DNA of 64,000 nucleotides, taken from positions 124,001 to 188,000 of the forward strand of contig NZ_UEGO01000012.1 of the NCBI RefSeq assembly GCF_900465345.1, written 5' to 3'. The notes beneath the pieces are model-generated. The model had not been told where the DNA came from. It saw nothing but the letters and a program-made list of their open reading frames with translations, and made no database searches. Below are positions 56,608 to 61,509 of this stretch, in pieces. Source of the stretch: Asaia bogorensis (GTDB taxonomy: Bacteria; Pseudomonadota; Alphaproteobacteria; Acetobacterales; Acetobacteraceae). Position 1 is the first letter of the stretch; every line of letters begins with the position of its first letter. A program made the position numbers and the translations under genes.

Positions 56608-56640
56608 TCGGTCAAACGATCACGGGATTGGTTGCAGCGC

Positions 56641-57417
56641 ATGAATTTCGAATGTGCTGCAATCGTCCTCTCCGCCCGGCGCTACGGCGAGGGCGGAGCT
56701 GTGGTCCATCTCTTCACGGAAGAGCATGGACGCATTGCCGGTCTGGTGCGTGGCGGCTCGTCACGACGTCAGGCCGCGCTCTGGCAGCCGGGTAATCTGA
56801 TACTCGCCCGTTATGCCTCCCGCCTGTCCGATCAGCTCGGGCATCTGAGCGGTGAAATGGTTCAGGAAACAGCCGTCAGGCTACTGGACCGCCCTCTGCA
56901 ACTCGCTCTGGTTCAGTCAGCGGCCGAACTGGCCGATGCTGCCTTGCCGGACCGCGAGCCTCATCCCGATTTCTTTCTTCAGACCGTGCGCGATCTCGCG
57001 GCCTTCTGTGTGCTGTCCGATCCCGCCCCGGTGGTGGATTATGTGCGCTGGGAAACCGCGTTGCTGGCGACGCTGGGTTATGGGCTCACGCTCGATTGTT
57101 GTGCCATTTCAGGCGCGACGACTGATCTCGCCTTTGTCTCTCCGCGAACAGGACGCGCTGTAAGCCGCGATTCTGCCGGGCAGTGGGTCGATCGTCTCCT
57201 GCCACTGCCTCATTATCTGACCCCGCAAGGGGTTGAGGATGACGGCGATGATCCCGCCCTCTGGGCTGAGGGGCTGGCATTGACGGGACATTTCCTCTCG
57301 CGCCATCTTTTCGGCTCCCAGCACAAACCAGTCCCCGGTGCGCGTGAGCGTCTGGAAATGCGTGTCAGGGCGCTGGCGGATGCGCGTGAGACCGTGCAGG
57401 AAAAGCCTTCGGCATAG
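56641..57417 (+). CDS. recO: DNA repair protein RecO
   Basis: RecO loads RecA onto SSB-coated single-stranded DNA in the RecFOR pathway. The 258-residue protein starts with the RecO OB fold ('AAIVLSARRYGEGGAVVHLF' then 'EEHGRIAGLVRGGSSRR') and continues into the helical domain ('WETALLATLGYGLTLDCCAI'). The four-cysteine zinc module of some RecO proteins is not obvious. The ATG at 56641 is used; TTG at 56632 is possible. The 3' end overlaps the convergent dioxygenase gene by 53 bp. Confidence 0.92.
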   Translation: MNFECAAIVLSARRYGEGGAVVHLFTEEHGRIAGLVRGGSSRRQAALWQPGNLILARYASRLSDQLGHLSGEMVQETAVRLLDRPLQLALVQSAAELADAALPDREPHPDFFLQTVRDLAAFCVLSDPAPVVDYVRWETALLATLGYGLTLDCCAISGATTDLAFVSPRTGRAVSRDSAGQWVDRLLPLPHYLTPQGVEDDGDDPALWAEGLALTGHFLSRHLFGSQHKPVPGARERLEMRVRALADARETVQEKPSA

Positions 57418-58315
57418 ATGTTCGTGCTTCGCGAAGCGCCGGGGCCCTTCCAATCAGATAATCGAATATCATGTGGGGCAGCGTCAGAGCGGCCAGAAGC
57501 TGGAACGTGACAGCGATCATTCGCGGTGCCAGCGGCCCTGCGTAGAACGGCACCATGACGGCCCCGATGCCTAGCGAGGCAAATGTGAGCGGCAGGCTGC
57601 GATAGAATGCGTGACCCGCTGAACTGAGACGGCACCAGCGACAGTCAGCTATGAGCGATTCGATATGCGCCGGCGCGTGCTGGGCCACAAAATAGATCAT
57701 GAACGCTTGCAGCGGCGGCAACAACGCGAACGGGACAATCAGCCCGAACAGCGACCATAAGCGCCTCATGCGTGTCGCGGGAGGACTGACGCCTAACCAC
57801 GCGCTGACGCAGAGGGCCCAGACGGGAAACGGAACGATCAGCCATAATGGTGGCATGATGAGATGAACAGGCGGCGCCATGGCACTCAGCAGCGCTGCCG
57901 TGGCTTCTGGCTGGAATACGCAGGGGAGGATCAATGGTGCCCCCCCAAGGACAAACCCGGCAAGCAGCGACGAACCATTGTCGCGCATCTCACCGCCAAA
58001 ATGCCAGACGGACAGAGCCAGAAACAGATTGAGCGTGATCAACGGCTTGATATGCCAGGTGATGAGCACGAGCCCGACGAGCGCGAGATAAGGCAGCGCA
58101 AAAACAGGAAACCAGAGATACCCGAGACGGGGCCGCAGCGCTTGTCGTGCCATCTCTCCATCAAGCGCACCATGTGGGAGACCAAAGATGATGATGGTGG
58201 CGAGACTGATCAGCACATTATCGGTGAGGATCGCGGCAGCGGCGCAAATTCCCGCGCCGCCCCAATAGAGCGGGGCGAAGAAATCGCGTGGCCCGGTCAA
58301 TGTCATGAATGTCAT
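57365..58315 (-). CDS. blh: Brp/Blh-type beta-carotene 15,15'-dioxygenase
   Basis: Cleaves beta-carotene to two retinal molecules, the chromophore of rhodopsin, in the inner membrane. The 316-residue protein has seven to eight hydrophobic helices and the family's conserved metal-binding and catalytic histidines: H48 in 'GLPHGALDGEMA', H105 in 'SVWHFGG', H213 and H217 in 'FVAQHAPAHIES' and H281 in 'LPHMIFDYL'. It sits 16 bp downstream of the rhodopsin gene on the same strand, so the pair is one transcription unit. The start may be the first Met (58315) or the fourth residue (58306); neither has a strong ribosome-binding site. The carotenoid-making genes are not in this window. Confidence 0.93.
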   Translation of the reverse strand: MTFMTLTGPRDFFAPLYWGGAGICAAAAILTDNVLISLATIIIFGLPHGALDGEMARQALRPRLGYLWFPVFALPYLALVGLVLITWHIKPLITLNLFLALSVWHFGGEMRDNGSSLLAGFVLGGAPLILPCVFQPEATAALLSAMAPPVHLIMPPLWLIVPFPVWALCVSAWLGVSPPATRMRRLWSLFGLIVPFALLPPLQAFMIYFVAQHAPAHIESLIADCRWCRLSSAGHAFYRSLPLTFASLGIGAVMVPFYAGPLAPRMIAVTFQLLAALTLPHMIFDYLIGRAPALREARTSMPKAFPARSHAHPPAP

Positions 58316-58331
58316 GCCGGGCCAGACATCA

Positions 58332-59042
58332 TCAGACCGTGGTCAGTTTACGGTCATCGGACAGGCTGAGGAAGCCAAACCCGACCTTCGCCAGAACATC
58401 CGTGATGGCGATAATGAGCACGCTTGCCGAGTCCGGAACGATGCCAAACCCGTCAGGCGAGAGAGCGAGAATGATCGGGTACACCATCCAGAGCACCGAA
58501 AGGATGGTGGCGCTGCGGATATAGGCCGCCTGGACTTCGGGCCGTTCGAGGCGGTTGGCCTGAAGCTGTGAGACCCAGATGACATAATACACACCGAGAA
58601 ACGCCACGCAGGAAAGTACGAACCAGATCCAGCGGCTCAACACGTTTTCCGAGGCACTGAAGGCAAAGGCAGTGATGACCATGATCACATCGGCTGTGAC
58701 GGCACCAAGCAGCAGATCGGCTCGCTTGCGGCCACGGAACATGCCAAGAAACCCGAGACCGACAAGCAGAAGCGGGGTCGTAAACACCCAGTCGATATAG
58801 CGGCCAAACCAGAAGATACGGGTCGTGCTGGCGGCGCCTGCGAGTGTGGCGTCCGTCGGCAGGAACACTGCGCCCTGGCCAGTCGCCATGGCGACATACA
58901 AACAACCTGCGATGATGGGGACGATACCGTGGGCAAGGCTCATAACCCCTTCGGTTTCGGTACGACGTTTGCCAAGCAGCAGCAGCGCCGTTCCACCGGC
59001 AAACATGATCAGGGCTGTCAGCCAGAGAACTGTCAGGGTCAT
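58332..59042 (-). CDS. microbial rhodopsin with DTG motif (putative proton pump)
   Basis: A 236-residue type-1 rhodopsin with seven helices. Essential residues are present: retinal lysine K219 in 'ITDVLAKVGFGF', second counterion D215, helix-C arginine R81 and primary counterion D84 in 'RYIDWVFTTPLLLVG', with T88, W85, W185 and Y188 lining the pocket. The third functional position (bacteriorhodopsin D96) is G95, so the motif is D-T-G, not DTD or DTE. L92 at the spectral-tuning site predicts green absorption. D197 matches bacteriorhodopsin E194, whereas the E204 position is Ser. D84 with the other pump residues favours outward proton transport, but the glycine leaves the internal donor undefined. 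It heads a two-gene operon with blh. Confidence 0.95.
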   Translation of the reverse strand: MTLTVLWLTALIMFAGGTALLLLGKRRTETEGVMSLAHGIVPIIAGCLYVAMATGQGAVFLPTDATLAGAASTTRIFWFGRYIDWVFTTPLLLVGLGFLGMFRGRKRADLLLGAVTADVIMVITAFAFSASENVLSRWIWFVLSCVAFLGVYYVIWVSQLQANRLERPEVQAAYIRSATILSVLWMVYPIILALSPDGFGIVPDSASVLIIAITDVLAKVGFGFLSLSDDRKLTTV

Positions 59043-59286
59043 TATCGCTGTCTTTCACGAGATGAGGAGAGCGATGAACGGTGCCTGACACATAAAGTTG
59101 TAATTCATCTGCCTTGACAGCCATATTTATCGGACCTGATCGCGCCTAGGCCTTTCTCTGGGCCGATGACGCAGGGGTGGCCATCCGCTGAAGCGTGCCA
59201 AGAGGGACCGGGAACAAAAACGGGGTATTTGCACTGGACAGGCCGCGCCGCGCCGCCTTATCTGCCCTGAAACGAAAGGGCGTGGC

Positions 59287-61509
59287 ATGAGTCAGGATCT
59301 GGCAGGACATATCGAGGATACCAAACTCGCAGACGCGCTGAGCGAGCGCTACATTGCCTATGCCATGTCTACCATCATGGCGCGTTCGTTGCCCGATGTG
59401 CGCGATGGTATGAAGCCTGTGCATAGGCGCATCCTCTACGCCATGCAGCAGCTCAAGCTGGACCCGACGGCGGGTTTCAAGAAATGTGCCCGTGTCGTGG
59501 GTGACGTGATCGGTAAGTTCCATCCCCATGGCGATGCCGCCGTGTACGAGGCGCTGGTCCGCCTCGCCCAGGACTTCGCGGTGCGTTATCCGCTTGTCGA
59601 AGGCCAGGGCAATTTCGGTTCCATTGACGGCGATAACGCAGCCGCCATGCGTTACACGGAGTCCCGGCTGACCGCTGTGGCCAAGGCCCTGCTGGAAGGC
59701 ATCGAGGATGACGCGGTCGATTTCCGTCCGACCTATGACAATGAGGATGCCGAGCCCGTGGTCCTGCCCGGCGCTTTTCCGAACCTGCTGGCCAATGGCG
59801 CTGCCGGGATTGCGGTTGGCATGGCCACCAGTATTCCCCCGCATAACGCCGCCGAGATCTGTCGCGCCGCACGTCATCTGATCGAGAACCCGCAGGCGCC
59901 TGTCGAGGCGCTGATGCAGTTCATGCCGGGACCTGACTTCCCTACAGGTGGCGTGCTGATTGAGGACCCTGCCAGCATGGTCACGGCTTACGAGACCGGA
60001 CGCGGCAGTTTCCGTACCCGCGCGCGATGGGAAGTCGAACAGGGACGTTTTGGTACCTGGACCGTGATCGTAACCGAGATTCCCTATCAGGTGCAGAAAT
60101 CGCGCCTGATCGAGCAGATCGCGGAGTTGATGGAGCAGAAGAAGCTGCCGCTCCTTGCCGATATACGCGATGAAAGCACGACCGATATCCGCCTTGTCCT
60201 CGAACCCAAGACCAAGGGGATCGAGCCGGAAGTGCTGATGGAAACGCTCTTTCGTGTCACGCCGCTGGAGAGCCGTTTCAGCCTGAACATGAACGTGCTG
60301 GACGCCAATCGCGTGCCGCGGGTGATGGGACTGCGTGAAGTCATCCAGTCATGGCTGGACCATCGCGAGATCGTTCTCGTTCGCCGTTCTCAGCATCGTC
60401 TGAACGCAGTTGAGCGCCGTCTGGAAATCCTCGAAGGGTTTCTGGCCGTTTATCTCAACCTTGATGAAGTTATCCGCATCATCCGTGAAAGCGACGAGCC
60501 GAAGCCCGAATTGATGCGTGTGTTCAGCCTGACGGATCTGCAGGCCGAATATGTGCTGAATATGCGCCTGCGCTCGCTGCGTCGTCTTGAGGAGATCGAG
60601 ATACGCAAGGAGCGTGATGCGCTTCTCAAGGAGAAATCCAGGCTCGAAGGATTGCTGGGTAGTGAGCGCAAACGCTGGACCCGTATCGGCAAGGAACTCG
60701 ACGCGACAGCCGCCAGCTTTGGCGAGGGCGCTCTTGGCACCCGACGCACCCAGATTGCGGCACCGCCCGCACCGATCGATTTGAGTGCCGCCATACAGGT
60801 CGATCGTGAGCCCCTGACCGTGCTTCTTTCACGTGAAGGCTGGGTGAGGGCCGTGAAGGGACATGGGATCGACCCAGAGAGCCATAAGTTCAAGGAAGGT
60901 GACGCGTTCGGGCTGTCGCTCGAGTGTCAGAGCACCGATCGCCTCTGTATCCTGGTGAGTGGCGGTCGGGCCTTCACGCTCAAGGCGGCTGACCTGCCGC
61001 GTGGGCGTGGCTTTGGGCAGCCCATTCGCGTTCTGGTCGATCTGCCTCAGGATGAGGATATCGTCTCTTTCTTCGTGATCGATGAGTCCGGCCGTCACGT
61101 TCTGGCCAGCGAAAGCGGACGCGGCATGATTGTGCGTGACGCCGATATGGCCGCTGAAAAACGGACGGGCAAACAGGTCCTGACGCTGCGTGACGGTGAC
61201 CGCGCCGGGTTCTGCGCGGCTGTCACTGGTGATCAGATCATCACCATGGGCAGCAACCGCAAGGCGCTGTCCTTTGCTCTCGATGCCCTGCCCGAAATGA
61301 CAAAGGGCATGGGTGTCACGATCCAGAAACTCCCGCCGGGTCAGCGCCTTGTCGATCTGCGGGTCTTTGCCTCGGAAACAGGTCTGGTCTGGCATGAGGG
61401 GCAAAAGCCGCGCAGTGACGCCGATCTCGCGTCGATCGTCGGCAAACGAGCGGATCAGGGCAAGGCTGCCCCGCAATGGATGACCCGCAAGCCCGTGACC
61501 AGAAGCTGA
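59287..61509 (+). CDS. parC: DNA topoisomerase IV subunit A
   Basis: ParC, the DNA-breaking subunit of topoisomerase IV, 740 residues. The catalytic tyrosine is Y123 in '[11 protein letters not shown]'. The winged-helix region contains '[20 protein letters not shown]', where A84 occupies the position of E. coli Ser80. The length and the shorter, less blade-like C-terminal domain favour ParC over GyrA; the start '[22 protein letters not shown]' also fits. It is read away from the rhodopsin cassette; the 245 bp between them must hold both promoters. Confidence 0.93.

What the first reader, a model, noticed from the sequence alone, without database searches (positions are those of the whole stretch)
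57365..59042. Self-contained rhodopsin-retinal cassette in an acetic-acid-bacterium-like genome
A microbial rhodopsin and a Brp/Blh-type carotene dioxygenase lie 16 bp apart on one strand. This would let the cell make retinal and use it for light-driven ion transport. The position between recO and parC is a plain housekeeping context with no mobile genes, so the cassette has probably been vertically kept or recombined in cleanly. A respiratory acid producer running a light-driven pump would be of ecological interest, because the outward proton gradient could offset acid stress or support carbon-limited survival.
Basis: partly seen in the sequence, partly recalled or inferred. Interest (0 to 1): 0.8.

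Follow-up and report, generated by a model that had tools for sequence, protein, structure and literature searches.

The report
Asaia rhodopsin operon lacking beta-carotene supply
The Asaia genomes examined keep a light-driven pump gene next to the enzyme gene meant to make its pigment, yet none shows a known route to the carotene that enzyme cuts, so where the pigment comes from is an open, testable question.

Summary
A type-1 rhodopsin (58332-59042, minus) and a Brp/Blh dioxygenase (57365-58315, minus) lie 16 bp apart between recO and parC in an Asaia genome. The pair is already in print for A. bogorensis (PMC4596401). It sits at the same site in 9 of 9 Asaia genomes held and in Swaminathania (blh intact in 9 of these 10); 6 of 13 other Acetobacteraceae loci show recO beside parC without it.

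"Self-contained" is not supported: 0 of 9 Asaia genomes shows a phytoene synthase (only HpnC, HpnD) or a CrtY/CarR-type cyclase; 9 of 9 carry a C30 diapocarotenoid desaturase pair.

The rhodopsin (motif DTG) falls in a clade with Methylobacterium (MpR-like), not with mirror proteorhodopsins. The 22 sampled Acetobacteraceae hosts of this clade all carry the C30 pair; one has a plausible lycopene cyclase. Two retinal-ring-site residues (BR G122 to A/S, W189 to L) are changed in 25 of 25 clade rows and 0 of 25 others.

Most likely: a light-driven outward proton or cation pump whose chromophore does not come from an ordinary endogenous beta-carotene pathway: scavenged, made by unrecognised enzymes, or, boldly, a ringless C15 analogue cut from the C30 carotenoid.

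The parts
58332..59042 (-). MpR-like DTG-motif type-1 rhodopsin, 236 aa (D84, T88, G95, H38, K219)
   Evidence: PF01036 E 7.3e-42; motif alignment; tree; ring-site residues A at BR G122 and L at BR W189
57365..58315 (-). Brp/Blh-family carotenoid 15,15'-dioxygenase, 316 aa
   Evidence: TIGR03753 above cut-off; H48, H105, H213 and H281 invariant in 26 aligned Blh, H217 replaced by Q in the 3 partners of mirror-type rhodopsins only
58316..58331 (-). 16-bp intergenic gap, suggesting one operon
   Evidence: coordinates, gap; same gene order in the 9 Asaia loci and Swaminathania
59043..59286 (.). 244-bp divergent intergenic region between the rhodopsin and parC; presumed promoter region (not tested)
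56632..57417 (+). recO, convergent flank; its last 53 bp overlap the end of blh
   Evidence: TIGR00613 above cut-off; overlap
59287..61509 (+). parC, divergent flank
   Evidence: TIGR01062 above cut-off

Best explanation
A two-gene operon that entered once, between recO and parC, in the common ancestor of Asaia and Swaminathania and has been kept since. It encodes a light-driven outward cation pump of the MpR-like DTG clade, most likely pumping protons, together with its partner dioxygenase. Inferred mechanism: light isomerises the chromophore on K219; the Schiff-base proton passes to D84 and out; with Gly where BR has the Asp96 donor, reprotonation comes from the cytoplasm by way of the conserved His38 region and water. 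Shown by sequence: the genes, their intactness, selection on the rhodopsin, the clade, and the absence of the searched phytoene synthase and lycopene cyclase families next to a C30 carotenoid gene set. Inferred: the operon, pumping, ion and direction. The dioxygenase therefore does not appear to be fed by an ordinary endogenous beta-carotene pathway. My split for the chromophore source: scavenged carotenoid or retinal about 40%, a beta-carotene route through unrecognised enzymes about 25%, C15 aldehyde cut from the C30 carotenoid about 20%, other 15%.
For: Family hits. Rhodopsin in 9 of 9 Asaia plus Swaminathania (genus size). Cassette at the same site in these 10, while 6 of the 13 other Acetobacteraceae parC loci listed have recO just before parC and no rhodopsin; the other 7 show no recO in the stretch held. 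The G009 gap holds a different small ORF. Rhodopsin dN/dS 0.04-0.08. Tree: own sequence in a 25-row clade with two Methylobacterium plasmid rhodopsins, 100/98, apart from the mirror rows, 100/100. PF00494 finds only hpnC and hpnD in 9 of 9 Asaia; TIGR01789 0 of 9 and PF18916 0 of 9, while the same searches found CrtY above cut-off in G360 and CrtB-like proteins in several relatives. Adjacent crtN/crtP-like genes in 9 of 9, with an acyltransferase and a glycosyltransferase beside them in the window's genome.
Against: PMC6151773 (passages) reports beta-carotene at 0.1 and 0.7 ug per 100 mL in A. bogorensis ISD1 and ISD2 and other C40 carotenoids in all six strains, said to be matched to standards; if right, a C40 route exists. 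MpR is cited as a Na+/Li+ pump, so 'proton' may be wrong. Asaia has lost two of the three MpR carboxylates, so MpR may be a poor guide. PF05834 gave two marginal passes in the window's genome (24.3 and 24.4 bits against 23.4), which I take as shared FAD-binding sequence because E. coli also rings. CruA-type cyclases were not searched with a model of their own. No function was measured.
Confidence: 0.62

Rival explanations
1. Self-contained cassette: Asaia makes beta-carotene by unrecognised or promiscuous enzymes (for example the HpnC/D and CrtN-like enzymes acting on C40, plus an unknown cyclase), and Blh cuts it to retinal as usual.
For: PMC6151773 reports beta-carotene in 2 of 3 A. bogorensis strains. 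Blh is a full-length family member with the conserved histidines. A. minutum makes retinal although it lacks the known gene (PMC7734400, passages), so gene absence can mislead.
Against: No phytoene synthase and no CrtY or CarR-type cyclase in 9 of 9 Asaia. The same paper finds no beta-carotene in its three A. lannensis strains, although the named A. lannensis genome NBRC 102526 carries the pair. Its compound list includes neoxanthin, synechoxanthin and myxoxanthophyll, for which I expect no genes here (recalled, not searched).
Confidence: 0.25
2. Scavenging: Asaia lives on flowers and fruit and in insects, takes up beta-carotene (cut by Blh) or retinal made by others, and uses the rhodopsin only when supplied.
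For: No endogenous route found. A rhodopsin bacterium that needed added retinal is described (Rhodoluna lacicola, in PMC7734400). Flower, fruit and mosquito habitats are stated in PMC6151773. The rhodopsin is under strong purifying selection.
Against: No carotenoid uptake gene was searched for. It does not explain why the clade's 22 sampled Acetobacteraceae hosts all carry the C30 pair, unless that pair is common in the family anyway (not tested).
Confidence: 0.4
3. Non-standard chromophore: Blh cuts the host's own 4,4'-diapolycopene-type C30 carotenoid at 15,15', giving a ringless C15 aldehyde with the same conjugated chain as retinal, which binds K219 in a ring site altered to fit it.
For: C30 pair in 22 of 22 sampled Acetobacteraceae hosts of this clade, absent from the one mirror-type host G360 (best match 31%). 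Of 16 pocket positions compared, two (BR G122, W189) separate the clade from the rest, 25 of 25 against 0 of 25. KR2 G153, which I equate with BR G122, is listed among residues round the ring (PMC6491443, passages); AR3 Trp199, which I equate with BR W189, contacts ring methyl groups of an analogue (PMC8721008, passages). [quoted passage not shown] Unrelated CCD enzymes cut C30 diapocarotenoids (PMC5133782, passages).
Against: No biochemistry. The 25 rows form one clade, so the ring-site change counts as one event and could be colour tuning. MpR is cited as active, presumably with added retinal (the original was not read). How common the C30 pair is in Acetobacteraceae without this rhodopsin was not measured, and four other rhodopsin hosts (G018, G026, G105, G284) were not searched for it. 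Catalytic histidines are shared with ordinary Blh.
Confidence: 0.2
4. Blh is decaying or serves another role, and the rhodopsin uses retinal taken from outside (a special case of scavenging).
For: Blh diverges far faster than the rhodopsin: outside G149, 46-62% identity to the window's Blh against 86-96% for the rhodopsin; dN/dS 0.39 (own-G149) and 0.27 (W19-krungthepensis) against 0.06 for the rhodopsin in both pairs.
Against: Blh intact in 9 of 10 loci, catalytic motifs kept, and blh next to the rhodopsin in 9 of the 12 other hosts of this clade; in the other three the contig is short or ends close by. recO reaches 0.31 in the W19-krungthepensis pair too.
Confidence: 0.12

Closest known systems
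[quoted passage not shown]
   Same: Same genus, same two genes in an operon, same proposed role.
   Different: That passage does not discuss beta-carotene supply, the DTG motif, the clade or the genus-wide locus; 'carotenoid' has 0 occurrences in the main text.
MpR-like DTG/DTS rhodopsins (Methylobacterium populi MpR, cited in PMC10154332)
   Same: Same clade as two Methylobacterium plasmid rhodopsins that bear the MpR E-E-x-D pattern; no carboxylic donor; blh next door in both plasmids.
   Different: Asaia keeps one of the three MpR cytoplasmic carboxylates (E31; the others are G32 and M34) and has Ser at both SpaR-type extracellular positions.
Mirror proteorhodopsins (SpaR, PspR, PaR; PMC10154332, passages and one section seen)
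   Same: DTG/DTS motif, His at BR T46, Ser at the S121 and S199 positions.
   Different: No H32/H33, separate clade, different ring-site residues, Blh partners of another subtype.
C30 carotenoid pathway of Methylobacterium extorquens AM1 (PMC10448405, passages seen)
   Same: HpnCDE-derived precursor, CrtN and CrtP type oxidoreductases, glycosyltransferase and acyltransferase.
   Different: In the window's genome the genes after HpnCDE sit in one row with an aldehyde dehydrogenase; the product is unknown.

Membership tests
Type-1 microbial rhodopsin (PF01036) | Profile match above the curated cut-off, Schiff-base Lys, Asp counterions | tested here: met
   143.8 bits against 24.6; D84, D215, K219
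MpR-like DTG/DTS clade | Phylogenetic placement with Methylobacterium rhodopsins | tested here: met
   25-row clade, 100/98; MpR itself was not in the tree, the two Methylobacterium plasmid rows stand in for it
MpR-like DTG/DTS clade | Carboxylates E32, E33, D35 (MpR numbering), said to be shared by most members | tested here: not met
   Asaia has E31, G32, M34; the Methylobacterium rows have E, E, D
MpR-like DTG/DTS clade | Na+/Li+ transport | not testable with these tools
   needs an ion-transport assay
Mirror proteorhodopsin | H32 and H33 (SpaR numbering) | tested here: not met
   G32, V33 in Asaia
Mirror proteorhodopsin | S121 and S199 (SpaR numbering) | tested here: met
   S129 and S207
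Mirror proteorhodopsin | Placement in the SpaR/PspR/PaR clade | tested here: not met
   six-row mirror clade 100/100 without Asaia; the labels SpaR for 8anq and PspR for 7w74 are recalled
Brp/Blh dioxygenase | TIGR03753 above cut-off | tested here: met
   160.8 bits against 95.25
Brp/Blh dioxygenase | Conserved iron-ligand histidines (ligand roles recalled) | tested here: met
   H48, H105, H213, H217, H281 present; all but H217 invariant in 26 sequences
Brp/Blh dioxygenase | Cleaves beta-carotene to retinal | not testable with these tools
   needs an enzyme assay
Self-contained rhodopsin-retinal system | Phytoene synthase in the genome | tested here: not met
   only HpnC and HpnD in 9 of 9 Asaia
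Self-contained rhodopsin-retinal system | Lycopene cyclase in the genome | tested here: not met
   TIGR01789 0 of 9 and PF18916 0 of 9 Asaia. PF05834 in the window's genome: five weak matches, two marginally over the cut-off, read as FAD-binding sequence. CruA model not searched

The most novel reading that the evidence does not exclude
The MpR-like rhodopsins of C30-carotenoid bacteria (Asaia, other Acetobacteraceae, Methylobacterium) use a natural ringless C15 retinal analogue, made when their partner Blh cuts 4,4'-diapolycopene at its centre. That would be a naturally made non-retinal chromophore for a microbial rhodopsin; the changed ring site (BR G122 to A/S, W189 to L) would be its mark.
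Probability: 0.18. Interest if true: 0.96.

Novelty: new variant of a known kind. Interest (0 to 1): 0.62.

Why it matters
A rhodopsin kept under strong selection, with a partner enzyme whose known substrate the cell apparently cannot make, poses a sharp question in a cultivable genus: where does the chromophore come from? Each answer is informative: carotenoid supplied by plants or insects, an unknown beta-carotene route, or a chromophore that is not retinal. The same pattern in other Acetobacteraceae, with a matching ring-site signature, suggests something clade-wide. It also warns that adjacent rhodopsin and blh genes do not prove a complete retinal pathway.

Tried and rejected
Mirror proteorhodopsin (acid-active pump) was my first reading, because 7w74 and 8anq, which I recall as PspR and SpaR, are among the best sequence matches with solved structures; the tree and the missing H32/H33 rejected it. 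Recent mobile transfer was rejected: the flanks scanned are recO, parC and arginyltransferase, the locus is the same in 9 Asaia and Swaminathania, and cassette GC is 0.595 against 0.599 for the window; however, two Methylobacterium relatives sit on plasmids, one beside a transposase. A crt plasmid missing from one assembly was rejected, because 9 of 9 Asaia genomes lack phytoene synthase and one of them is a single contig. Blh as a pseudogene was rejected. Paper searches for a link between Asaia or DTG rhodopsins and C30 carotenoids or carotene supply showed none in the rows listed (listings only, most of them capped at 12-20 rows; open-licence PMC papers only). No Blh relative with a solved structure was found by sequence. 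Blh had no match in phages. Rows dropped: L034, L047 and L104 from the tree (kept in the residue counts); L035 (G105) gave no full ORF and is in neither. One search was a useless 20-residue scan.
Full report
OBSERVATION. Pfam (both) and NCBIfam (Blh) assign them well above their cut-offs; NCBIfam has no hit for the rhodopsin. The gap is 16 bp; blh runs 53 bp into the end of recO; 244 bp separate the rhodopsin from parC. The host is Asaia: the named close relatives, at 86-96% rhodopsin identity, are seven Asaia records and Swaminathania salitolerans. No call names the window's own species; the nearest genome held, G149 (one contig), is 98% identical in rhodopsin and 99% in ParC.

ALREADY KNOWN. 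The pair in A. bogorensis NBRC 16594 was reported in 2015 as an operon for a possible light-driven ion pump and its retinal enzyme (PMC4596401, one passage seen).

DISTRIBUTION AND LOCUS. The rhodopsin query hit 27 of 397 Acetobacteraceae genomes, among them 9 of 9 of the genus (genus size). recO, blh, rhodopsin and parC lie together in Asaia and Swaminathania. blh is intact in 9 of 10 loci examined; the tenth, A. platycodi, has breaks in blh and in parC, as expected of a rough draft. Of 13 other Acetobacteraceae parC loci listed, six (G002, G009, G010, G012, G014, G015) have recO just before parC and no rhodopsin; seven show no recO within the stretch held. In G009 the gap holds a different small ORF. 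I read this as one clean insertion before Asaia and Swaminathania split. No recO or parC was found near the other family rhodopsins, though several of those contigs are short.

SELECTION. NG86 dN/dS for the rhodopsin is 0.04-0.08 in eight pairs (several dS values above 1 are saturated). Blh is looser: 0.39 (own-G149) and 0.27 (W19-krungthepensis), 0.11-0.42 in the more distant pairs that could be computed. recO is 0.08-0.31. The rhodopsin is clearly used; Blh is kept but evolves fast, with its motifs intact.

WHICH RHODOPSIN. The motif at BR 85/89/96 is DTG in 9 of 9 Asaia and DTS in Swaminathania. A 47-row tree (three of the 50 aligned rows left out) puts it in a 25-row clade (100/98) of Acetobacteraceae plus two Methylobacterium plasmid rhodopsins, separate from a six-row clade (100/100) of 8anq, 7w74, Sphingomonas, two Pantoea and G360, which I call the mirror clade; that 8anq is SpaR and 7w74 PspR is recalled. 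Long branches elsewhere make the deep joins unsure. The Methylobacterium rows carry the E-E-x-D pattern that PMC10154332 gives for MpR-like rhodopsins, so I call the 25-row clade MpR-like; Asaia keeps only one of those three carboxylates and has the two serines said to mark SpaR-like proteins. By the printed criteria it is thus a mixed case, placed by the tree. MpR is cited there as a Na+/Li+ pump (original not read), SpaR as a proton pump active at acid pH. I think proton pumping more likely, because the Asp-Thr pair at 85/89 is kept and the NDQ motif of known sodium pumps is absent; this is inference.

NO KNOWN BETA-CAROTENE ROUTE. PF00494, which covers phytoene, squalene and dehydrosqualene synthases, finds in each of the 9 Asaia genomes only two genes (one is split in G259). 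In the window's genome they pass the HpnC and HpnD cut-offs, beside HpnE and a squalene-hopene cyclase; in the other 8 genomes they are 82-99% identical to these. CrtY (TIGR01789) hits 0 of 9 Asaia and not Swaminathania; PF18916 hits 0 of the 23 genomes searched. PF05834 in the window's genome gives five weak matches: four within the first 38 of 380 positions, one over positions 1-143 in an ORF that reads like a dihydrolipoamide dehydrogenase (by eye). Two of the five pass the Pfam cut-off marginally (24.3 and 24.4 bits against 23.4), but the same search rings in 10 of 14 controls, E. coli included, so I read them as FAD-binding sequence. The searches can find real genes: CrtY in G360, 486.6 bits, above cut-off, and CrtB-like proteins in G360, G017, G049 and G358; these score below NCBIfam's own CrtB cut-offs but well above the HpnD model. 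G086 and G132 are ambiguous between CrtB and HpnD, G128 was not resolved, G206 had no PF00494 hit and G163 one partial hit. In G017 weak CrtY-like hits (67 and 59 bits, below cut-off) lie beside PF00494 genes on two contigs, one of which also holds its second, DTE-motif rhodopsin and a second blh. Two further TIGR01789 hits, in G108 and G163, are 23 and 19 bits over the first 140 positions; I discount them.

C30 PATHWAY INSTEAD. Two adjacent crtI-family genes are present in 9 of 9 Asaia (fragmented in the drafts G307 and G286). In the window's genome they stand in a row with an aldehyde dehydrogenase, an acyltransferase and a glycosyltransferase, much the set described for the C30 carotenoid of Methylobacterium extorquens AM1, whose precursor comes from HpnCDE (PMC10448405, passages). 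A matching pair (53-59% and 57-63% identity) is in 12 of 12 other Acetobacteraceae genomes that carry an MpR-like rhodopsin, and in Swaminathania (72% and 79%); in the mirror-type host G360 the best match is 31%. That makes 22 of 22 hosts of this clade in the sample. Of these, one (G017) has a plausible lycopene cyclase; G163 and G206 are only 73% and 67% complete. The other five rhodopsin genomes are G360 and G018, G026, G105, G284; the last four were not searched for the C30 pair. I could not measure how common the pair is in Acetobacteraceae without the rhodopsin, so the association is unproven.

CONTRARY CHEMISTRY. PMC6151773 (passages) reports ten carotenoids in six Asaia strains by UHPLC-MS, including beta-carotene at 0.1 and 0.7 ug per 100 mL in two of three A. 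bogorensis strains and none in three A. lannensis strains, with 0.05% yeast extract in the medium; it says peaks were compared with standards. This conflicts with the gene content. Misassigned C30 pigments could explain it, but that is my conjecture.

THE RING SITE. I compared 16 pocket positions, after thinking of the C30 reading. Two separate the clade perfectly: at BR G122 the 25 MpR-like rows have A or S and the 25 others G; at BR W189 the 25 have L and the 25 others W, F or Y. The equivalent KR2 G153 is listed among residues round the beta-ionone ring (PMC6491443), and AR3 Trp199 contacts ring methyl groups of an analogue (PMC8721008); the equivalences are mine, from offsets and motifs. 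The rows form one clade, so this is one event; colour tuning is a plain alternative, although KR2 G153S was among eight changes that gave no significant red shift.

WHAT IT MIGHT MEAN. Central cleavage of 4,4'-diapolycopene would give a C15 aldehyde with double bonds at C5, C7, C9, C11 and C13 and the aldehyde at C15, the same conjugated chain as retinal without the ring (own derivation). [quoted passage not shown] Crouch was not read). Other, unrelated dioxygenases cut C30 diapocarotenoids (PMC5133782, passages). I give this about 20% for Asaia and 18% as a clade-wide claim, behind scavenging (40%) and an unrecognised C40 route (25%); no biochemistry exists for any of them here.

VERDICT. The gene pair is of a known kind and already in print. 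I saw no mention of the missing beta-carotene route, the C30 association or the ring-site signature in the passages and listings I looked at, most of which were capped.

Noticed in passing
L121:6125-12805 (G000:C36): Likely C30 carotenoid gene row: aldehyde dehydrogenase, crtN-like, crtP-like, acyltransferase, glycosyltransferase, then DUF2141, with an iron-containing alcohol dehydrogenase upstream; perhaps the source of Asaia's pink colour.
   Followed up: partly
L138 and L222 (G017): One Acetobacteraceae genome carries an MpR-like rhodopsin with its own blh and also a DTE-motif rhodopsin with a second blh, near PF00494 and weak crtY-like genes.
   Followed up: partly
L223:6208-8646: A single ORF in G086 that joins a CrtI-type desaturase to a CrtB/HpnD-type domain.
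   Followed up: no
L205, L206: Two Methylobacterium plasmids carry the MpR-like rhodopsin and blh pair; on NZ_CP099615.1 it sits beside an IS91-family transposase and an integrase.
   Followed up: partly
L207-L209: The Blh partners of mirror-type rhodopsins (Sphingomonas, two Pantoea) have Gln where the other 23 aligned Blh have the second His of the H-x3-H motif.
   Followed up: no
L123 and L124 (G108): One genome with two MpR-like rhodopsins (motifs DTS and DTT), each next to its own blh.
   Followed up: no
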